A stretch of DNA of 64,000 nucleotides from Paludibacter sp. (GTDB lineage Bacteria; Bacteroidota; Bacteroidia; Bacteroidales; Paludibacteraceae), in NCBI GenBank assembly GCA_010365115.1, contig JAAFGX010000001.1, positions 1-64,000 on the forward strand. Reading direction: 5' to 3'. The notes beneath the pieces were generated by a model. The model searched no databases. It was given only the letters and a program-made list of their open reading frames with translations, and was not told the DNA's origin. Made by a program: the position numbers and the translations under genes. Position 1 is the first letter of the stretch, and the number at the start of each line of letters is the position of its first letter. Positions 40,447 through 48,738 of this stretch are shown one piece after another.

Positions 40447-42174
40447 TTATTTTTTCTTTAATGAGAAAATAAAACTAAGTCCACCACCGGGAATATTTTT
40501 AGCCGAAATGGTGCCGCGATGAAATATTACAGCATTTTTCACAATAGCCAATCCTAGTCCGGTGCCACCCATTTTGCGGCTTCGTCCTTTATCTACTCTG
40601 TAAAAACGTTCGAAAAGTCGGTTCAGATGTTCTTCTGCAACTCCAACTCCATTGTCGCTAAACGAAAAATAATAAAACATATCATCTTCACGATAACAAT
40701 TGATATCTATGGTTAGTTTTTCGCCTGCATAGGCCAAGACATTATCCATTAAATTTCGGAAAATGGAGTAAAGTAGCAATCGATTGCCTTGTATTTGTAA
40801 ATCTGGGTTGTAGTTTTCTAAAACAATGCATTCTTTTTGTTCAATCTCCAAATGGACATCGTTTAACATATCTGAGATTACTTCAGATATATTGCAACTT
40901 TCTTTTTCGAATAATCTTTTACCTTCATCAATTTTATTCAAAGTTGAGATATCTTGTAATAAATCTCTCAAACGGAGTGCCTGCTGGAATGAGCGCTCTA
41001 CAAAGAACCGCTGGCGCTGGGGATCTAAACCGGGATTTTCCAGAATGCTCTCCATGTAACCCAGTATACTGCTTACCGGCGTTTTCAATTCATGAGAAAT
41101 GTTTTGGGTTAAATGCCTTTTTAGCTCATTTTCATGTTCTTGTACCGAAATATCATTTATCGAAATTTCAAAAGTATCATCCTGAAAGACAATGCATTGT
41201 ACTGCGAAATTTCTACTGCCTTTTTCTATTGTAAGTCGTTTTTTAGTAAGTTTTTTGTGTAATAAGTTTTGATCTATAAATTCATTTAAATCGGCAAATT
41301 CCGGTAAAGAAAAGATTTCATTCGAACTATTAAACTGTTTGTCAGAAATAATATTGGTATATTGAATGAAATGAGTATTTGTCAATAATTCTTTCTTTTC
41401 GGATGAAAAAATGCCCAATCCTTCTTGTGATATTTGAAGGTGTTTAATTAATTTTTCTCGCTCCTTGTTTACTTCATCCTTCGTTTGAAGCAGCAATTTG
41501 TAAATTTGAACAATATTTCTGCTTATTTCACCCAATTCATCATTTGGAAATTCAATGTCAATATCCTGAAGTTCTTCTTTTTCAGCATTTTTTGTGAAAA
41601 TTCTCAATCTGTCGATAGAACGGGTGAAATTTCTAACTATAAAGTACAATGCCAATATTGCAATTATAAGTATGAACGCCATAAAATAAAGGAAAAATGT
41701 ATTGGCTTTAAGCATACTAACCAGACTTACATTGTAAGGCAATGCACTTCTTACATATCCATTGGGAAAACGATGTGCCAGATAATAATAATCTTTTCCG
41801 GTAGAAATGGAGTGGCGTATTGCTTTTCCATTCTCAGAAACATTTGCCATTTCAATTTCCGGACGATGGAGATGATTTCCCAATTGTAAACCATTTTCAA
41901 CGGATGAGTCAAAAATCACTAAACCCGTTGTGTCTATTACTGTAATCCGAAGATTTGAATCCGGGAAAAGTTGTACATAATCTGTGATGCTTTTTATAGA
42001 AGGATTCCGTTCAACAATAAACTTGTTGATGGAATAGTTGTATGTAGCAAGTTGTTGATCAAGTTGTTCAGTGCGAAATTCTTTCTCGCGCTGGTACTGA
42101 AAAAAACAGATGATAACCAGCATCATAAAAAATATGCTGAAAAAGTAGAGAAATATGCGGCGGTTTAAAGTCAT
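40447..42174 (-). CDS. phoR: PhoR-type sensor histidine kinase
   Basis: 575 residues. Transmembrane helices are at about 8-25 and 155-178 with a periplasmic sensing region between them. HAMP-like, then a PAS-like segment, then the HisKA H-box ISHELKTPVSSILGY. The ATPase domain has the N-box (FRNLMDNVLAYAG), G1 (FSDNGVGVAEEHL) and G2 (GGTGLGLAIVKNAV). It pairs with the PhoB-like regulator upstream, and both lie beside the pst-phoU genes, so phosphate sensing is the likely role. Whether it senses phosphate through PhoU/Pst is inferred. Confidence 0.85.
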   Translation of the reverse strand: MTLNRRIFLYFFSIFFMMLVIICFFQYQREKEFRTEQLDQQLATYNYSINKFIVERNPSIKSITDYVQLFPDSNLRITVIDTTGLVIFDSSVENGLQLGNHLHRPEIEMANVSENGKAIRHSISTGKDYYYLAHRFPNGYVRSALPYNVSLVSMLKANTFFLYFMAFILIIAILALYFIVRNFTRSIDRLRIFTKNAEKEELQDIDIEFPNDELGEISRNIVQIYKLLLQTKDEVNKEREKLIKHLQISQEGLGIFSSEKKELLTNTHFIQYTNIISDKQFNSSNEIFSLPEFADLNEFIDQNLLHKKLTKKRLTIEKGSRNFAVQCIVFQDDTFEISINDISVQEHENELKRHLTQNISHELKTPVSSILGYMESILENPGLDPQRQRFFVERSFQQALRLRDLLQDISTLNKIDEGKRLFEKESCNISEVISDMLNDVHLEIEQKECIVLENYNPDLQIQGNRLLLYSIFRNLMDNVLAYAGEKLTIDINCYREDDMFYYFSFSDNGVGVAEEHLNRLFERFYRVDKGRSRKMGGTGLGLAIVKNAVIFHRGTISAKNIPGGGLSFIFSLKKK

Positions 42175-42250: not shown

Positions 42251-42940
42251 CTACTCTTCAAAACAATATCCATAGCCCAGTCGGGTGACGATATTTTTCC
42301 CATAAGGACCAATTTTTTTTCGTAAACGGGTAATGTTTACGTCTATAGTGCGGTCAAGTACAATTACTTCGTCGCTCCACACGCGAGTGAGCATTTCATC
42401 GCGCGAGAAAACTCGATTTTTATTTTCAAGAAACAATTTTAAAATTTCAAATTCTTTTTTGGTAAATGGAACTTCCACTCCTTCGAGCATCACTTTTTTA
42501 TTTTCCATGTGCATTTCCAGATTCTCGTACGTTAAATGGAGTGGACTTGCAACTGACATTTTATTAGATTCTACCCGTCTGATGATGGCTTTTACACGTG
42601 CAATGACTTCACGTATTGAAAATGGTTTAGAAATATAATCATCAGCACCAACATTAAAACCTGTTAATCGATCGTTTTCCGAATCTTTAGCAGTGAGGAA
42701 AATAATTGGGATATTTCTCGTTTTGGGATTTTCGTTAAGCAATCGAGCCATTTTAAACCCCGACATCTCACCCATCATTACATCCAGCAACAGTAAATTA
42801 TAAACGGTGATGTCTTTTTTTAGTGCTTCCTCGGCCGAATTAGCTACATCAACCAAATAACCTTCAGTTTCTAAATTAAACTGAAGAATCTCACATAAAT
42901 CTTCTTCATCATCAACTACTAATATACGATAAGTATCCAT
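42251..42940 (-). CDS. phoB: PhoB-type response regulator
   Basis: 229 residues from MDTYRILVVDDEED; a start two codons upstream (42946) is equally possible, and the longer frame to 43057 passes through the predicted promoter. The receiver has the acidic pair in VVDDEED, phosphoacceptor Asp in LLLLDVMMGEM, and the Lys in DDYISKPF. The C-terminal winged helix (FTKKEFEILKLFLENKN, TIDVNITRLRKKIG) binds DNA. It is the likely reader of the 11-bp repeats in front of pstC. Confidence 0.88.
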   Translation of the reverse strand: MDTYRILVVDDEEDLCEILQFNLETEGYLVDVANSAEEALKKDITVYNLLLLDVMMGEMSGFKMARLLNENPKTRNIPIIFLTAKDSENDRLTGFNVGADDYISKPFSIREVIARVKAIIRRVESNKMSVASPLHLTYENLEMHMENKKVMLEGVEVPFTKKEFEILKLFLENKNRVFSRDEMLTRVWSDEVIVLDRTIDVNITRLRKKIGPYGKNIVTRLGYGYCFEE

Positions 42941-43014
42941 ATTCATTATATTATAGATTAATATTCTCCACAAAGAAACAAATTTTTTATTTCGGAGCCG
43001 TGTAATAACTATTA

Positions 43015-43048
43015 CAAAGATATGACAAAAAATGAACTTCTTTGCAAA
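43015..43048 (-). promoter_or_regulatory. Promoter of phoB-phoR
   Basis: Minus strand TTTG (43048-43045), 22-bp spacer, TATCTTTG (43022-43015). Exact elements with a spacer slightly longer than the other promoters here. No Pho-box-like repeats lie upstream, unlike in front of pstC. Confidence 0.65.
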
Positions 43049-43066
43049 TGAATCCAAAATTAGAAA

Positions 43067-43099
43067 AAACAGGCAAATCGGGAATCGATTTGCCTGTTT
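43067..43099 (-). terminator. Terminator of the pst-phoU operon
   Basis: A perfect 14-bp stem AAACAGGCAAATCG / CGATTTGCCTGTTT, 5-nt loop, then a T tract on the minus strand, 27 bp after the phoU stop. It cuts the pst operon from phoBR. Confidence 0.85.
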
Positions 43100-43126: not shown

Positions 43127-43792
43127 TTATTTTCTAGGTGAATGCTTCAACACTTTGGCATCCAGATAGAAGAAGATTTCTTCGGCAATATTGCTGCAAT
43201 GATCGCCCATTCGCTCTATTTTTCGGAATGCACCGATCAAATGTAGACATTCCAGTGCTCTTTCAGGATTTTTTTGAATATAGTTGGCAATTATTTTTGG
43301 TGCATTTGCATTTATTTCATCCACCTGATAATCTTCGCTAAAAATAGCAGCTGCAAAGTCGGTTTTTTCATTTTCAAAAGCATCTAAACCTTGTAAAAGC
43401 ATTTGATTTACCTTATCAAACATATCACGTAAGTTGGTTTCAGAAATTAATTCAGCGTCAAGTATTACCGACGGATTTGAAATTAAAATGCGTGATATTC
43501 CATAAGCAAAATCTGCTATCCGTTCAAGATTGGAATTGATTTTGAAAACTGCCAATACAAAACGCAAATCCACAGCAACCGGTTGATGTAGAGCAATAAT
43601 ATTTTCACAAAAGCTATCAATTTTCAATTCATATGCGTCTACTTTTTTCTCGCGCATAGAAACTTTCATTGCTAACTCTTTATCGAATGATAAAATCGCC
43701 TCGCCAGCATTAGAAACTTGTGTAATGACCAATTTCCACATGTCAATTACATCTTGTCGAAGCATCACTAATTCCTGATCTAAATGTCTCAT
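43127..43792 (-). CDS. phoU: Phosphate regulon protein PhoU
   Basis: 221 residues from MRHLDQELVMLRQDV; an in-frame ATG five codons earlier lies inside a repeat and is less likely. Two repeated three-helix units carry the PhoU metal-binding patterns (e.g. VFKINSNLERIADFAYGI and FRKIERMGDHCSNIAEEI). It represses the phosphate response when phosphate is plentiful, linking PstSCAB to PhoR. Last gene of the operon. Confidence 0.93.
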   Translation of the reverse strand: MRHLDQELVMLRQDVIDMWKLVITQVSNAGEAILSFDKELAMKVSMREKKVDAYELKIDSFCENIIALHQPVAVDLRFVLAVFKINSNLERIADFAYGISRILISNPSVILDAELISETNLRDMFDKVNQMLLQGLDAFENEKTDFAAAIFSEDYQVDEINANAPKIIANYIQKNPERALECLHLIGAFRKIERMGDHCSNIAEEIFFYLDAKVLKHSPRK

Positions 43793-43795
43793 AAT

Positions 43796-43935
43796 AATTG
43801 CCCCCATGCCCCCTAAAGGGGGTTTTTGAAGTTAGTATTGTTTTGTAAAATATATTATATATCAATTATCAGTGCTAATATTTTTTGTTCCCCGCAATTT
43901 ATCCCGATTTTTATAGGGAGGGGTTAGGGGCAATT
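43796..43935. repeat. Inverted C/G-rich element between phoU and pstB
   Basis: Ends AATTGCCCC (43796-43804) and GGGGCAATT (43927-43935) are perfect inverted repeats. Next to the left end lies GCCCCCTAAAGGGGGT, a palindrome of the same CCCCTAAAGGGG family as at 29121. The ~140-bp element fits exactly between the two genes. Confidence 0.6.
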
Positions 43936-44688
43936 TCATCCAAACCTTCCGGTAATATAATTCTGAGTTGAAATTTCTTTTGGATTTGTAAAAATTTTAA
44001 TTGTATCGTCAAATTCAATTAATTCGCCAAGATAAAAATAGGCTGTTTTGTCGCTTACACGTGATGCTTGTTGCATATTATGCGTTACTATAATGATGGT
44101 GTAATCCTTTTTTAGCTCATAAATCAGTTCTTCAATTTTCGCTGTTGATATTGGATCGAGAGCAGATGCAGGTTCGTCCATAAGTACAACTTTTGGTGAA
44201 ATAGCTAATGCACGGGCAATGCAAAGCCGCTGTTGTTGTCCACCAGAAAGAGCAAAAGCCGATTTTTTCAGCTTGTCTTTTACCTCGTCCCATAATGCCG
44301 CCGATTTCAACGATTCTACCACCCGTTGTTCAATAAAGGTATTATCTTTTATTCCATTAACACGCAATCCGTAGGCAATGTTTTCGAAAATTGTTTTTGG
44401 AAAAGGGTTCGGTTTCTGAAATACCATTCCTACCTTTTTGCGCAATTCATCAACATGAACATTGGGCGCATAAATATCCTCGCCTTCCACCAACACAGAC
44501 CCTGTCATACGTGTTCCATCAATCAAATCGTTCATGCGGTTAAGCAACCGGAGAAATGTGGATTTACCGCAACCCGAAGGTCCGATTAAAGCCACAACTT
44601 TATTTTTCTCAACTTCGAGGCTGATGTTTTTAAGTGCATGAAATTCACTGTAATAAAAATCTACATTTTTTGCGTCAATTGTCAACAT
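43936..44688 (-). CDS. pstB: Phosphate transport ATP-binding protein PstB
   Basis: 250 residues. Walker [10 protein letters not shown] near 36-44, Q-loop ([15 protein letters not shown]), ABC signature [16 protein letters not shown], Walker [14 protein letters not shown] and the H-loop ([10 protein letters not shown]). The P-N-P-F-P motif is specific to PstB. It powers high-affinity phosphate uptake with PstC and PstA. It follows pstA with a gap of 68 bp that includes 7-bp-spaced AAGTT words. Confidence 0.96.
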
Positions 44689-44756: not shown

Positions 44757-45644
44757 TTAGTTTGTTTTTACTTTTTTAGAGAAATAATTTCTAAGGAAAT
44801 TCGCTAGTAAATTTACCAGTAATACAATTACAATTAGCACTAATGCAGTTCCGTATGCAATTCCGCGTGATGCTTCTACGTCAGTTCCACTTGTAGAAAT
44901 TACATACAAGTGATAGGGTAATGCCATCACCTGATCGAAAATACTTGTTGGAAGTTTTGGTAAAAAATAAGCAGCTACGGTAAAAAGAATAGGAGCCGTT
45001 TCGCCTGAAACCCGACCAATAGAAAGAATCAATCCCGTAATGATATTCGGGAAAGCCATTGGTAGAACTACTTTCCATATTGTTTGCAATTTAGTTGCAC
45101 CCAATGCCAAACTTCCTTCGCGGTACGATGTTTCAATTGCTTTCAATGATTCCTCTGTAGTGCGAATGACCAAAGGTAAGGAAAGTAAACCTAATGTCAA
45201 TGAACCGGCAAGAATTGAATCGCCAAAACCCATTGTGTTTACAAATAGTGCCATTCCAAATAATCCGAAAACAACAGAAGGAACTCCACTTAAATTATTG
45301 GTCATGATCCGAATAAAAGTGGCAATTTTACTGCCTTTGGCATATTCGTTCATGTAAATTCCCGACATGATTCCAATAGGAAAACTGAACAAACTGCTTC
45401 CAAGTACTAAATAAAGAGTCCCGATTATGGCCGGATAAATTCCGCCTTCAGTCATACCTTCTTTTGGAGGCTGAGTCAAAAACTCCCAATTGATTACACC
45501 AATTCCTTTGGTAATAATAAATCCGAGAATTAAAAACAAAATGGCTACCACCGAATAACTCATAAGTTTAAAAATGGTAAAAGCAATTGCCTGTGACCAT
45601 CTTTTTTTCTTATCTGTTTTATCTGCGCGTATTATTGGTGTCAT
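44757..45644 (-). CDS. pstA: Phosphate ABC transporter permease PstA
   Basis: 295 residues, six transmembrane helices. The EAA-type cytoplasmic loop is REGSLALGATKLQTIWKVVLPMAFPNIITG, and NNLSGVPSVVFGLFG is the conserved pore-helix region of PstA/PstC. It begins two bases after pstC, implying coupled expression. Confidence 0.94.
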   Translation of the reverse strand: MTPIIRADKTDKKKRWSQAIAFTIFKLMSYSVVAILFLILGFIITKGIGVINWEFLTQPPKEGMTEGGIYPAIIGTLYLVLGSSLFSFPIGIMSGIYMNEYAKGSKIATFIRIMTNNLSGVPSVVFGLFGMALFVNTMGFGDSILAGSLTLGLLSLPLVIRTTEESLKAIETSYREGSLALGATKLQTIWKVVLPMAFPNIITGLILSIGRVSGETAPILFTVAAYFLPKLPTSIFDQVMALPYHLYVISTSGTDVEASRGIAYGTALVLIVIVLLVNLLANFLRNYFSKKVKTN

Positions 45645-45646
45645 AA

Positions 45647-46834
45647 CTATTGATATTTCTTTTTTCCTATAAATTCAATACTAATACTAATAATCATGGT
45701 GATGAGAAACAAAATACATCCCAATGCAAAAAGTGCCTGATAATGACCGCTTCCGGCTGAAGCCTCGCCAAGTTCGGCAGCAATTGTAGCCGGAATTGTC
45801 CTAACCGGTTCTAGCAGTGTATGCGGAATTACTGCAGCGTTACCGGTTACCATCAATACTGCCATTGTTTCACCAATTGCACGCCCAATTCCAAGAACTG
45901 CTGCCGATGTTATTCCTGATTTAGAATAAGGAATTATCACCCTGTAAATAGTTTGCCAATGCGTTGCTCCTAATGCCAGACTGGCTTCTTTCATGGCTCG
46001 TGGCACCGTTCGCATGGCGTCTTCTGCAACTGTTATAATAGTTGGCAATGCCATAATTCCCAGCACTATACTTCCTGCTAAAGCAGTTTCGCCAACCGGC
46101 AATTTGAAAGACTCTTGTAAAAATGGTACAATTACTACTAAGCCGAAGAATCCATATACTACGGATGGTATTCCAGCAAGTAATTCAATAATCGGTTTCA
46201 GAAAATTGCGGACGCGCATGGTGGAAATTTCAGCCAGATATACTGCAACTGCAATTCCAAATGGTAATGATAAAAGTATAGCACCCAAACTTACCCAAAG
46301 CGTTCCTAAAAGGAGTGGGAGTAAGCCATATTGAGCCGAAGGAGTTGCAGTTGGATACCATTCTTTGCCACCAAAGAAATCTCCTGGTTGAATGGTTTCG
46401 TGTTCGAGTAAAGTGCCATTAAAGTTTTTGGCTACATATTGCTTGGGAAGAAAAAGTACAATTCCAGGGAGTTTTGCGGTTAATTCGCTGGCTTTAGAAG
46501 GTATGTTTTCAAATTCGGCCCCTAGTTCTTCTTCTGTATAATATTTTGTCAGATCGCTCAATCGAACCACTTCAATTGGCTCTTCTTTTCCGCCAACTTC
46601 GTCCCAGTTTGTTATTTCAGCATCAAATATTTGTTTGATTTGATAGGCATCCAGTTTTTTTACTGGATTTGATTTATTCATTGCCAACACATATCCTTCT
46701 TCTATCACGGGAGCATTAAATAAGCCTGAAGCCTCTTTGAATAAGAAAAGAATAATCAATAAAATGGTAATACTGGTTATGCTACCACTTATCAATAAAG
46801 TTCCTTCTACCAGCTTTTCAAAAAATCGTTTCAC
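45647..46834 (-). CDS. pstC: Phosphate permease PstC with PstS-like insert
   Basis: 395 residues, longer than the usual ~300-320. After the first helix (about 14-33) there is a ~130-residue extracytoplasmic segment before the remaining helices. Within it, residues 52-92 (MNKSNPVKKLDAYQIKQIF, then ITNWDEVGGKEEPIEVV) match the NPV-x-x-L-x-x-x-Q-x-x-x-I-F...NW-x-x-VGG pattern of the phosphate-binding protein PstS. The permease part has LLAGIPSVVYGFFGL and EASLALGATHWQTIYRV. First gene of the operon, behind the Pho-box array; no pstS gene is next to it. Confidence 0.9.
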   Translation of the reverse strand: MKRFFEKLVEGTLLISGSITSITILLIILFLFKEASGLFNAPVIEEGYVLAMNKSNPVKKLDAYQIKQIFDAEITNWDEVGGKEEPIEVVRLSDLTKYYTEEELGAEFENIPSKASELTAKLPGIVLFLPKQYVAKNFNGTLLEHETIQPGDFFGGKEWYPTATPSAQYGLLPLLLGTLWVSLGAILLSLPFGIAVAVYLAEISTMRVRNFLKPIIELLAGIPSVVYGFFGLVVIVPFLQESFKLPVGETALAGSIVLGIMALPTIITVAEDAMRTVPRAMKEASLALGATHWQTIYRVIIPYSKSGITSAAVLGIGRAIGETMAVLMVTGNAAVIPHTLLEPVRTIPATIAAELGEASAGSGHYQALFALGCILFLITMIISISIEFIGKKKYQ

Positions 46835-46857
46835 ATCAATGCTTTTTAAATTGTATG

Positions 46858-46865
46858 CAAAGAAA
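46858..46865 (-). promoter_or_regulatory. Probable -7 element of the pst operon
   Basis: TTTCTTTG on the minus strand, one mismatch from TAnnTTTG, lies 9 bp downstream of the nearest Pho-box half-site and 24 bp upstream of the pstC ATG. There is no TTTG at -33; the half-sites occupy that place, as expected for an activator-dependent promoter. Confidence 0.45.
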
Positions 46866-46874
46866 CTGATTCGG

Positions 46875-46913
46875 TATTAAAACGGAATTAAGAACGTGTT
46901 ACAATGGTGTTAC
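46875..46913 (-). promoter_or_regulatory. Four Pho-box-like half-sites in front of pstC
   Basis: On the minus strand, GTAACA, GTAACA, TTAATT and TTAATA start exactly 11 bp apart (5-nt spacers). They fit the TT[ACT]A[CT]A half-site of Bacillus PhoP boxes (one at 6 of 6, three at 5 of 6), and 11-bp phasing is typical of PhoB/PhoP binding. They end 9 bp from the probable -7 element. The regulator would be the phoB product encoded downstream. Confidence 0.6.
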
Positions 46914-46940
46914 GATTTTACTTTCGTTGAAGATTATTCA

Positions 46941-46993
46941 AACAATCGTGTAGGAAGTGAGCGAAATAATTGCTCACTTCCTACACGATTGTT
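46941..46993. repeat. Perfect 22-bp inverted repeat
   Basis: Arms 46941-46962 and 46972-46993 are exact reverse complements with a 9-nt loop (GAAATAATT). It lies between the lipoprotein gene and the pst promoter. Read on the minus strand it would make a strong hairpin, but only TTTG follows, so it is not a textbook terminator. It may end transcription from the upstream lipoprotein genes. Confidence 0.7.
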
Positions 46994-47157
46994 ATTTTGA
47001 TTTGAAATAACCTCAAATCAATTCATAGGAGTAGGCGGAGCAACCTGTTTGTTCGTGTTTCTTGAATTTACAGCCTAATCAAATTATACGATTCAATTCT
47101 ATTACTATACCGAACCAATAAAAATTAACCTGGACATCAAACCCTGATTTCTCCGTA
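46994..47157. other. Non-coding remainder upstream of the pst promoter
   Basis: Together with the Pho box and the inverted repeat this fills the 323-base gap between pstC and the lipoprotein gene. No open frame with coding character, RNA fold or further repeat was recognised in this part. Confidence 0.4.
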
Positions 47158-48738
47158 TCAACTCCTTATAAATTGCCGGATACGCGTCGGAACGATTGCG
47201 CCATTTTCGTAATACTCGACAGTGTAAGTTCCGGATGAGGTAAACGTAATGGACATATCAGTAGGTTTATTACTGTCGGTCACCGTAAATTCCTGACTTT
47301 TCGAGGCAGTATTGTATGTGCCAATGGTCCAGTTCAGAGGTACAAAATCAGTGAGTACCCATGTGCCTCCTTTTAAAACTATTCTCAGCGATTTACCTTG
47401 GGGAACTTCAGCTTTTATTGAATATACTTTACCACTACGGGTTATTTGCAGTGAATCGTTCAATATATTTTCTCCTGCTTTGCCAGTAAGCGGATAAGTT
47501 ATGAAGTTTACAATCGGAGCAGGATCACTAACATTAAGTTGCTTTACCCGGGTAGGTGTTATAGCACCATTTTCGTAATACTCAATTGTTACTGTTCCAG
47601 CATCGAACAACATAGCTATATCGTTAGGCGTATTATTTTTATTGACTGAAAACTCCTGTACTTTTGAGGACTCGTCATATATACCGACAGTCCAGTTTAC
47701 TGGTACCGGTATAGCTCTGTAATACCATTTACTGCCTTTAAGTACCACTCTCAGGCTAGTTCCTTGAGGTAAATTAGCTGTCATAGAATAGTATACTGTC
47801 GTCGATGAATAGAAGTCCCTTGGATGTATAGAAGTAATAGAATCCGACAATATATTAATGCCCGAATCCCCTCTGTCCGGATAAGTAATCATTTTAGTCT
47901 GTGTGTATATTGTTTTGCTGATAAACTCCTGCACTTTCGATTCAAAATCTGGAATTTTCACGTTGTTAAGCCCAAGTTCAGTATATTTAGCCACCAAGTG
48001 CTCTCGTACAGAAGGCAATGAAATAAATTTTGCATTATTAATCATTGCAGAACCCAGTGATGCATCGTCCAGTTTTCCATCAGTTTTGATATCGGCAATG
48101 ATATTGGCCATGAGTTCCGACATATCAGCTGTGCTCAACTGACCTTGTAAAATACACGAAACTGCGAGCAGAATAGCATTATCTTCTCCATTACCACTCA
48201 AATTAAGGCTTTCGGAAGTTGAATCGGAAGGTAGGGTCAGGTTGAAAATCTGTAAAACTTCGGTTTGAGCCTGCTTCTTGGCAGCTGCAAAAGTTATTTT
48301 ATTTTCCTGCACCAAATACTCCACCCTGCTTTTTTCCAAATGAGTCAACACGTTTATATTGGCCGAATTCACAACCGACACATCGGCCAACGCATACAGC
48401 GTGAGTTGTCCCGTAGACGATTCACCGCTTACTTCGTTAAAATAGTAACCATCGGCTTTAAGTTGAACGTATTTGGAAACGAGTTCGATTTTCTTTTGTT
48501 CGAAACTACCCGAATTATTGCTCACCGTAGTTGAATAGCTCCGCCCTGTCTGATCGAGCAACGTATCCAGTTCCGAAATAATAACTGATGAACCGTTGAT
48601 AAACGGACCTTTTTGCACGTATCCGCTGAAAAGTTCTTTTTTAAGCGGTTCAGCCGGTTTCTCCAGCACAATGGTTTCGCACCCGATAAGTATCAGGGAC
48701 AAACCCAATACAACGAAAGAAAAGATTTTTGTTTTCAT
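47158..48738 (-). CDS. Lipoprotein with two C-terminal tandem domains
   Basis: 526 residues with a lipoprotein signal ending L-I-L-I-G-C (Cys20). The N-terminal part has GYVQKGPFINGSSVIISEL, a carboxypeptidase-regulatory-like beta module found in bacterial surface proteins. The middle is helical (about 130-285). Residues about 286-406 and 415-526 are repeats of each other: both run NIL-x-DS, LPQG or VPQG then SLR-x-VLKG, VNWT/LNWT, S-K-x-QEF and end EYYENGAI-x-PTR. It probably sits on the cell surface. Function unknown. It follows the T9SS protein gene by 20 bp on the same strand. Confidence 0.75.
   Translation of the reverse strand: MKTKIFSFVVLGLSLILIGCETIVLEKPAEPLKKELFSGYVQKGPFINGSSVIISELDTLLDQTGRSYSTTVSNNSGSFEQKKIELVSKYVQLKADGYYFNEVSGESSTGQLTLYALADVSVVNSANINVLTHLEKSRVEYLVQENKITFAAAKKQAQTEVLQIFNLTLPSDSTSESLNLSGNGEDNAILLAVSCILQGQLSTADMSELMANIIADIKTDGKLDDASLGSAMINNAKFISLPSVREHLVAKYTELGLNNVKIPDFESKVQEFISKTIYTQTKMITYPDRGDSGINILSDSITSIHPRDFYSSTTVYYSMTANLPQGTSLRVVLKGSKWYYRAIPVPVNWTVGIYDESSKVQEFSVNKNNTPNDIAMLFDAGTVTIEYYENGAITPTRVKQLNVSDPAPIVNFITYPLTGKAGENILNDSLQITRSGKVYSIKAEVPQGKSLRIVLKGGTWVLTDFVPLNWTIGTYNTASKSQEFTVTDSNKPTDMSITFTSSGTYTVEYYENGAIVPTRIRQFIRS

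What the first reader, a model, noticed from the sequence alone, without database searches (positions are those of the whole stretch)
46858..46913. Four-site, 11-bp-phased Pho-box array before the pst operon
Seen: on the minus strand GTAACA, GTAACA, TTAATT and TTAATA begin at exact 11-bp steps, 9 bp from a near-consensus -7 element, 41-79 bp upstream of the pstC start. The -33 box is missing and the half-sites occupy its place. Known: Bacillus PhoP and E. coli PhoB bind direct repeats with 11-bp phasing, and pst genes are their main targets. Inference: the adjacent phoB product activates this promoter, which would give a candidate Pho box for a phylum with a non-standard sigma consensus.
Basis: partly seen in the sequence, partly recalled or inferred. 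Interest (0 to 1): 0.75.

Follow-up and report, generated by a model that had tools for sequence, protein, structure and literature searches.

The report
Phosphate-starvation switch of the pst operon
A row of four evenly spaced short DNA words in front of the phosphate-uptake genes is very probably the landing strip of the phosphate-starvation regulator PhoB; the same layout recurs before other phosphate genes and in related bacteria, so a known kind of switch can now be read in a group with unusual promoters.

Summary
On the minus strand GTAACA, GTAACA, TTAATT and TTAATA start at 46913, 46902, 46891 and 46880, 9 bp before TTTCTTTG (46865-46858); pstC starts at 46834. The array scores 23/24; the best of 100 Markov-resampled windows is 21, and no other step from 8 to 14 bp exceeds 19. 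It aligns without gaps in 13 pstC leaders. A profile of those leaders alone, run over the whole genome, finds four more sites before anything else: porin-like gene + pstS, a second PhoB-like gene, phoB itself (window 43026-42971) and a small secreted-protein gene. Bacteroides, Parabacteroides and Phocaeicola leaders carry six phased sites, again ending 9 bp from the -7 box. B. fragilis PhoB binds the pstC promoter and is needed for pst expression (PMC3547664); its box was not mapped in what I read. Best explanation: a Pho box where PhoB dimers stand in for the missing -33 element. Pho boxes are a known kind, and a TTTAACA PhoP motif is published for another Bacteroidota, Riemerella (PMC9603813). 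I did not find the promoter geometry in print. No binding was measured here.

The parts
46908..46913 (-). half-site 1, GTAACA
   Evidence: sequence; T, second A, C and last A invariant, G and first A nearly so, in 13 leaders
46897..46902 (-). half-site 2, GTAACA
   Evidence: sequence; G, T and second A invariant in 13 leaders
46886..46891 (-). half-site 3, TTAATT (least conserved; lies where a -33 box would be)
   Evidence: sequence; mean information 1.11 bits per column against 1.49-1.70 for the others
46875..46880 (-). half-site 4, TTAATA
   Evidence: sequence; TAA and last A invariant in 13 leaders
46858..46865 (-). -7 octamer TTTCTTTG, 9 bp after half-site 4; predicted start of transcription near 46853 if the -12 to -5 placement reported for F. 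psychrophilum holds
   Evidence: placement from passages of PMC9723704; inference
45647..46834 (-). pstC, phosphate ABC permease (GTG start)
   Evidence: over the TIGR02138 cut-off
44757..45644 (-). pstA
   Evidence: permease domain; name by gene order
43936..44688 (-). pstB, ABC ATPase
   Evidence: name by gene order
43127..43807 (-). phoU
   Evidence: two PhoU domains
43064..43099 (-). hairpin plus T-run between phoU and phoB, read by eye as an intrinsic terminator
   Evidence: sequence; not scored by a terminator tool
42971..43026 (-). second array, before phoB: GTCATA 43026, GTAATA 43015, TACACG 43004, GAAATA 42993, nine bases, TTTCTTTG 42978-42971
   Evidence: model hit E 6.8e-4 with the pstC-only model; read
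42251..42946 (-). phoB, response regulator (ATG at 42946)
   Evidence: Response_reg and Trans_reg_C; closest solved DNA-binding domains are E. coli PhoB
40447..42174 (-). phoR-like sensor kinase
   Evidence: HisKA and HATPase_c; name by position beside phoB

Best explanation
The array is the Pho box of the pstCAB-phoU operon. When phosphate runs short the PhoR-like kinase phosphorylates PhoB. Two PhoB dimers then bind head to tail on one face of the DNA, one monomer per 11-bp repeat, with the last repeat fixed 9 bp upstream of a sub-consensus -7 octamer (TTTCTTTG). There is no -33 box. The promoter-proximal PhoB subunits sit where it would be and recruit the Bacteroidota primary sigma factor, so the promoter is off without active PhoB. 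The same arrangement drives the porin-pstS operon and phoB itself (positive feedback). Shown here: sequence, phasing, conservation, genomic targets and regulator homology. Shown by others in B. fragilis: PhoB binding to the pstC promoter and PhoB dependence of pst expression. Inferred: PhoB as the binder in this species, dimer number, sigma contact, activator dependence, feedback.
For: Exact geometry, not reached by resampled windows. Gap-free alignment of 13 leaders. A pstC-only profile finds, in 4.79 Mb: porin-pstS (E 6.5e-8), second PhoB-like gene (7.2e-5), phoB (6.8e-4), small secreted-protein gene (0.0037); next hit 0.105. Strict pattern in 40 genomes of the genus: 33 matches against 1 for the reversed pattern. 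Outside the training group, a weight matrix gives the shuffle floor (p=0.005) in 24 of 29 pstC leaders without a flagged pstS directly upstream and 0 of 11 with one. Six phased sites in 14 Bacteroides/Parabacteroides-type leaders, information falling from 1.0-1.8 to 0.2-0.5 bits per column beyond the sixth. DNA-binding domain closest to E. coli PhoB, including entry 1gxp (that 1gxp holds DNA is recalled). PMC3547664: PhoB EMSA on the pstC promoter; pstB, pstC and pstA listed as 353-, 428- and 542-fold down in the phoB mutant.
Against: No protein-DNA experiment on this box. In PMC3547664 wild-type pstC, pstA and pstB are not listed as changed by phosphate limitation, only as lost in the phoB mutant, so low-phosphate induction through the box is not shown there. 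5 of 29 leaders miss the floor: in four (L194, L219, L236, L238) the match begins inside or before an upstream pstS, judged from match lengths, but L222 is a real weak case (p=0.025). L225 reaches the floor with two or three good sites and no proper -7 box. phoB leaders score in 8 of 11 loci and pstS leaders in 15 of 32. Repeat-like elements in G005 also match the profile. A second regulator could be the binder. The genome is a 207-contig assembly with 7.2% estimated contamination, and the porin-pstS and second-regulator contigs are not physically joined to the window's.
Confidence: 0.9

Rival explanations
1. The array is read mainly by the second PhoB-like regulator (G000:C30), or by both regulators competing, rather than by PhoB alone.
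For: The two proteins are 77% identical and closest over the last third, including the stretch aligned to E. coli PhoB's DNA-binding domain. The second gene has its own array, and similar genes follow arrays in G024, G033 and G016.
Against: Only phoB lies beside a kinase and the pst operon; no kinase was seen beside the second gene in the stretch read. In B. fragilis deletion of phoB alone leaves only a trace of pstC expression (PMC3547664); whether B. fragilis has a second copy was not checked.
Confidence: 0.2
2. The array is bound by a different OmpR-type regulator with 11-bp repeats (for example an ArcA-like one) and the link with phosphate genes is secondary.
For: OmpR-family regulators share direct-repeat binding (recalled); the Riemerella PhoP motif was reported as highly similar to E. 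coli ArcA's (PMC9603813).
Against: The named targets are mostly phosphate genes: pstC, pstS, porin-like gene beside pstS, phoB, phosphoesterase, PHO4-family permease, PhoU.
Confidence: 0.05
3. Chance AT-rich words or an UP-like element before an ordinary promoter.
For: The region is AT-rich and words such as TTAATA are common.
Against: 11-bp phase only, not reached in 100 Markov windows, gap-free conservation, 33 against 1 reversed-pattern matches.
Confidence: 0.01

Closest known systems
E. coli Pho box (PhoB)
   Same: [quoted passage not shown] closest solved DNA-binding domain; takes the place of the upstream promoter element (recalled).
   Different: Half-site here is KTAAYA; the E. coli core is CTGTCAT. 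The promoter here has a Bacteroidota -7 octamer, not a -10 hexamer. phoB's own array does use GTCATA for its first site.
Bacillus subtilis PhoP core binding region
   Same: Four TT(A/T/C)ACA-like direct repeats at 11-bp steps between about -20 and -60 (recalled; one search found no paper on it). Here the array would span about -60 to -22.
   Different: Different sigma consensus and phylum.
Riemerella anatipestifer PhoP motif (Bacteroidota)
   Same: DAP-seq motif with TTTAACA as most conserved bases; PhoP binds upstream of its own operon, a TonB-dependent receptor gene and dedA (PMC9603813, passages and section 5).
   Different: 583 peaks read as ArcA-like; no word beginning with 'pst' in the main text and no mention of direct repeats. 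The motif figure itself could not be seen.
Bacteroides fragilis PhoB and pst promoter
   Same: PhoB binds a 512-bp pstC promoter fragment by EMSA and is needed for pst expression (PMC3547664, passages and one results section).
   Different: Binding site not mapped in the parts read; 'binding site' and 'consensus' do not occur in the main text.
Predicted Pho boxes at plcP clusters of marine bacteria
   Same: Putative PhoB sites were marked before plcP genes (PMC4796936, passages); a plcP-like gene is a target here too.
   Different: The motif used, and whether Bacteroidota were among the marked genes, was not seen in the passages.

Membership tests
Pho box (PhoB/PhoP direct-repeat operator) | two or more 11-nt direct repeats in phase | tested here: met
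Pho box (PhoB/PhoP direct-repeat operator) | lies before pst and other phosphate-starvation genes across the genome | tested here: met
   within loci centred on pstC
Pho box (PhoB/PhoP direct-repeat operator) | conserved in relatives with conserved pst operons | tested here: met
   exceptions listed in the Against line
Pho box (PhoB/PhoP direct-repeat operator) | PhoB-type regulator encoded in the genome | tested here: met
   two candidates. The full-length protein's best solved match is RegX3, the DNA-binding domain's is E. coli PhoB
Pho box (PhoB/PhoP direct-repeat operator) | PhoB protects the repeats | not testable with these tools
   needs a footprint; EMSA only, in B. fragilis (PMC3547664)
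Pho box (PhoB/PhoP direct-repeat operator) | low-phosphate induction through the box | not testable with these tools
   needs a reporter or transcript-start mapping
Bacteroidota primary-sigma promoter (TTG ... TAnnTTTG; the -33 part recalled) | -7 octamer TAnnTTTG | tested here: inconclusive
   TTTCTTTG fits 5 of 6 fixed bases; some other families keep a full TAnnTTTG in the same register, e.g. L242 TACTTTTG
Bacteroidota primary-sigma promoter (TTG ... TAnnTTTG; the -33 part recalled) | -33 TTG at about 19-21 bp | tested here: not met
   0 of 13 pstC and 0 of 9 porin-pstS promoters have a TTG ending 16-24 bp before the octamer

The most novel reading that the evidence does not exclude
Bacteroidota use one rigid Pho promoter design: an even number of PhoB repeats (four or six) that ends 9 bp before the -7 box, combined with a Pho-typical weakened -7 octamer (TTnCTTTG instead of TAnnTTTG) and no -33 box, so that transcription needs PhoB to hold the phylum's unusual sigma factor. 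The box then reads out whole Pho regulons, including lipid remodelling and a second PhoB.
Probability: 0.5. Interest if true: 0.6.

Novelty: new member of a known kind. Interest (0 to 1): 0.5.

Why it matters
Activator-dependent promoters are poorly mapped in Bacteroidota, whose sigma factor reads TAnnTTTG. A site with fixed geometry, found before pst genes in gut genera such as Bacteroides, Parabacteroides and Phocaeicola, lets Pho regulons be predicted from sequence, helps to say which B. fragilis PhoB effects are likely direct, and gives a compact promoter that can be tested half-site by half-site.

Tried and rejected
Chance or an UP-like element: rejected. A flexible repeat: the step is 11 bp and the gap to -7 is 9 bp in the aligned sets. 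An RNA element: Rfam gives 11 matches with E up to 1 in 46840-47160, all far below the gathering scores. A disguised -33 box in the porin promoter (TTTGACAAAA): no TTG ends 16-24 bp before -7 in any of nine. Porin identity by Pfam: no family for the own-genome protein even at E 0.1, so 'porin-like' rests on its N-terminus and place beside pstS. Profile hits in G005: those read (C2, C74, C101) are tandem CACTGTAATAT-like repeats in inverted pairs, set aside as mimics; paired hits on C3, C13, C55 and C95 look alike by position but were not read. A B. fragilis promoter was not obtained. A reversed-profile control was not built; the reversed-pattern control stands in.

Rows left out. Of 21 full-length PstC loci (L002-L022) 12 entered the alignment; L009, L015 and L022 have no usable upstream sequence, L016 and L018-L021 have the end of a pstS-like gene just upstream, L017 has another arrangement; L032 made 13. 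Of 11 fetched relatives of the porin region (L060-L070) eight gave the array; L066 gave no porin frame, L068 ends at the contig edge, L070 (another family) was left out. The 14 leaders were picked by eye as Bacteroides/Parabacteroides-type, and their -7 boxes were chosen partly by the fit of the last half-site. Its information values lack the small-sample correction used; L190 there has only four clear sites.

Limits of the counts: the matrix was trained on the 22 leaders; ten of the 12 Paludibacter-type rows are the same contigs. L197-L201 are near-identical. The -7 comparison (TTnCTTTG in 35 of 54 octamers with an array, 4 of 90 without; 3 of 147 intermediate octamers dropped) uses loci partly chosen by the profile, and related sequences count separately.

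Full report
What is there. The minus strand upstream of pstC reads GTAACA-N5-GTAACA-N5-TTAATT-N5-TTAATA-N9-TTTCTTTG at 46913-46858, with the GTG of pstC at 46834. The gene order on that strand is pstC, pstA, pstB, phoU, phoB and a kinase gene. No pstS was seen beside the operon; the one followed up lies on another contig. The closest named relatives are uncultured Paludibacter-type genomes, so I call the group Paludibacter-like.

Chance. Scored against KTAAYA the four words give 23 of 24. No other place on that strand of the window reaches 22. One hundred first-order Markov windows have maxima of 18 to 21. Steps of 8, 9, 10, 12, 13 and 14 bp give at most 19 in the real sequence. The word was chosen with the array in view, so the later tests carry the weight.

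Conservation. PstC searches of 60 relatives (39 with a match) and of 295 genomes of the order (50 with a match at 1e-100) gave the close orthologues. With the window, 13 leaders (11 of the genus, 2 of another family) align without a gap over 65 columns; 21 columns are invariant, 7 of them in the -7 octamer. Aligned on the octamer, mean information is 1.70, 1.49, 1.11 and 1.63 bits per column in the four sites and 0.12-0.46 in the next four 11-bp steps upstream: the array is four sites long.

The same array at other genes. In this genome a pstS lies on another contig behind a porin-like gene. Its leader reads GTAATA-N5-GTAACA-N5-GGCAAA-N5-GTAACA-N9-TTTCTTTG, and eight of eleven fetched relatives show the same layout. 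A profile built only from the 13 pstC leaders was run over the whole 4.79-Mb genome. After pstC it ranks porin-pstS (E 6.5e-8), a second PhoB-like gene (7.2e-5), phoB in the window (6.8e-4) and a small CarboxypepD_reg-type secreted-protein gene just before the second regulator (0.0037; domain); the next hit has E 0.105. E-values are rough by the tool's own statement. The phoB array is GTCATA, GTAATA, TACACG, GAAATA at 43026, 43015, 43004 and 42993, then nine bases and TTTCTTTG, 24 bp before the ATG at 42946 and behind what looks like a terminator after phoU. So phoB probably has its own promoter and feeds back on itself.

Regulon members in relatives. I read the genes behind 31 hits in 11 stretches and named some by Pfam. 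They add: phoB, the second PhoB-like gene in G024, G033 and G016, a calcineurin-like phosphoesterase with a glycosyltransferase behind it, an endonuclease/exonuclease/phosphatase-family secreted protein, a VTT-domain (DedA) protein, a PHO4-family permease and CarboxypepD/TonB-type proteins. The phosphoesterase pair recalls the plcP-glycosyltransferase clusters of lipid remodelling in PMC4796936 (passages seen); the name PlcP is by resemblance, and in this genome its hit is weak (E 0.517, 0.0565). Not all hits are of this kind: six in G005 are tandem 11-bp repeats in inverted pairs, and a few (for example G033:C27:374986 and G001:C2:360099) stand before no clear gene.

Pattern control. The strict pattern TAAY-N7-TAAY-N18-TAAY-N10-TTNCTTTG in 40 genomes of the genus gives 33 matches in 17 genomes; the same pattern read backwards gives 1. 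Six matches that I did not recognise as pstC or porin leaders were read: two PhoB-like genes, phoU, a secreted phosphatase, one transposase-like gene that looks like chance, and one without a frame before the contig end. A looser -7 (TWNNTTTG) in 395 genomes over the phylum gives 11 matches in 10 genomes (2 of them in this genome) and 0 backwards in the rows shown. Of the nine outside, seven have an open frame starting within about 75 bp: a phosphoesterase plus glycosyltransferase pair, two CarboxypepD/TonB-type receptors, three members of one secreted protein family, one unknown; two have none. The pattern cannot see six-site arrays, so 10 of 395 is no measure of absence.

Wider Bacteroidales. 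The best 80 of 228 named loci came from the genome collection. A weight matrix from the 22 leaders was tested against 200 dinucleotide shuffles for the 52 loci with at least 90 bp upstream. All 12 Paludibacter-type rows reach the floor p=0.005, but ten are the training contigs. Of 29 other loci without a flagged pstS directly upstream, 24 reach it. Of 11 with pstS directly upstream, none does, as expected if the operon starts further up. Over 330 upstream regions of genes in these loci, scores of 5 or more occur in 32 of 44 pstC, 15 of 32 pstS, 8 of 11 phoB, 3 of 3 phosphoesterase and 31 of 240 other regions. Of the 12 pstC misses ten have a pstS frame just upstream. Of the 31 'other' regions I read, by eye, 26 as porin-like genes, two as DedA, and one each as pstB, a pstC that my label missed, and a kinase-like gene. 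The loci are centred on pstC, so this is enrichment within a biased set.

Six sites. Fourteen pstC leaders of Bacteroides, Parabacteroides, Phocaeicola and relatives, aligned on the -7 box, show six 11-bp steps with 1.02-1.77 bits per column, and 0.17 and 0.51 in steps seven and eight. Words in L197 are GTAACA, GTAACA, GAAATA, TTCAAG, GACACA, TTAACA. The last again ends 9 bp before the octamer. Four and six are both even, which suits PhoB dimers; this is inference, and L190 has only four clear sites.

The promoter. In F. psychrophilum the -7 box TAnnTTTG lies at -12 to -5 (PMC9723704, passages). By that rule transcription starts near 46853 and the array covers about -60 to -22. No TTG ends 16-24 bp before the octamer in 13 pstC and 9 porin leaders. 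In a wider set of Paludibacter-type upstream regions a TTG 18-22 bp before the octamer occurs at 2 of 54 octamers with an array and at 11 of 55 TAnnTTTG octamers without; TTnCTTTG makes up 35 of 54 with and 4 of 90 without (loci partly chosen by the profile). So these promoters seem to lack the upstream box and to carry a weakened -7 box, as activator-dependent promoters do.

The regulator. The window's PhoB has a receiver and a winged-helix domain. The full-length protein matches RegX3 best among solved structures; its DNA-binding domain alone matches E. coli PhoB best (1qqi, 1gxp, 3t72; E about 4e-13). The second PhoB-like protein is 77% identical and most alike at the C-terminus, so it may read the same boxes.

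Literature. B. fragilis PhoB binds the pstC promoter (512-bp fragment, EMSA). pstC, pstA and pstB are listed as 353- to 542-fold down in the phoB mutant, while in wild type they are not listed as changed by phosphate limitation; a putative phosphate permease and one porin also fall in the mutant, a second porin does not (PMC3547664; passages and one section). In R. anatipestifer PhoP has a DAP-seq motif with core TTTAACA and binds upstream of dedA and a TonB-receptor gene (PMC9603813; passages and section 5), which fits the half-site and two target types here. In searches I found no description of this array geometry or of a mapped Pho box in Bacteroidales. These cover open-licence PubMed Central papers only; I saw passages of seven papers and otherwise listings.

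Judgement. A Pho box for the pst operon with high confidence; a known kind of element, a precise new instance, and a usable definition for Bacteroidales. Direct PhoB binding, dimer number and sigma contact are inferred.

Noticed in passing
window 46941-46993: Hairpin (22-bp stem, 9-nt loop, -38.4 kcal/mol, z -11.3) between the upstream lipoprotein-like gene and the array; the genome search found only itself and its own complement. Possibly a terminator, though no clear T-run follows.
   Followed up: partly
L130 (G000:C30:61928-63300): Second PhoB-like regulator with its own Pho array and no kinase seen beside it, followed by a gene that looks patatin-like by eye; similar regulators follow arrays in G024, G033 and G016, with the patatin-like gene in the last two.
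   Followed up: partly
L139 (G005:C101:62360-62474), L140 (G005:C2:19302-19409), L134 (G005:C74:17028-17147): Elements of tandem 11-bp CACTGTAATAT-like repeats in inverted pairs that mimic Pho half-sites; could act as decoys or be plain repeat elements.
   Followed up: no
L225, L235, L238: PstC genes 61% identical to the window's in records labelled Fibrobacteria or Fibrimonas, another phylum; gene transfer, mislabelled bins or loose labels. L225 and L235 leaders show partial arrays; L238 scores above 5 before a porin-like gene and pstS.
   Followed up: no
L256, L257, L258: Three genomes of one genus in another family of the class carry the array before one secreted protein family of about 430 aa; possibly the phosphate-induced lipoproteins reported in Flavobacterium (PMC8115612, passages), not compared.
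   Followed up: no
window 47158-48738: 526-aa lipoprotein-like gene upstream of pstC without a Pfam match at E 0.001.
   Followed up: no
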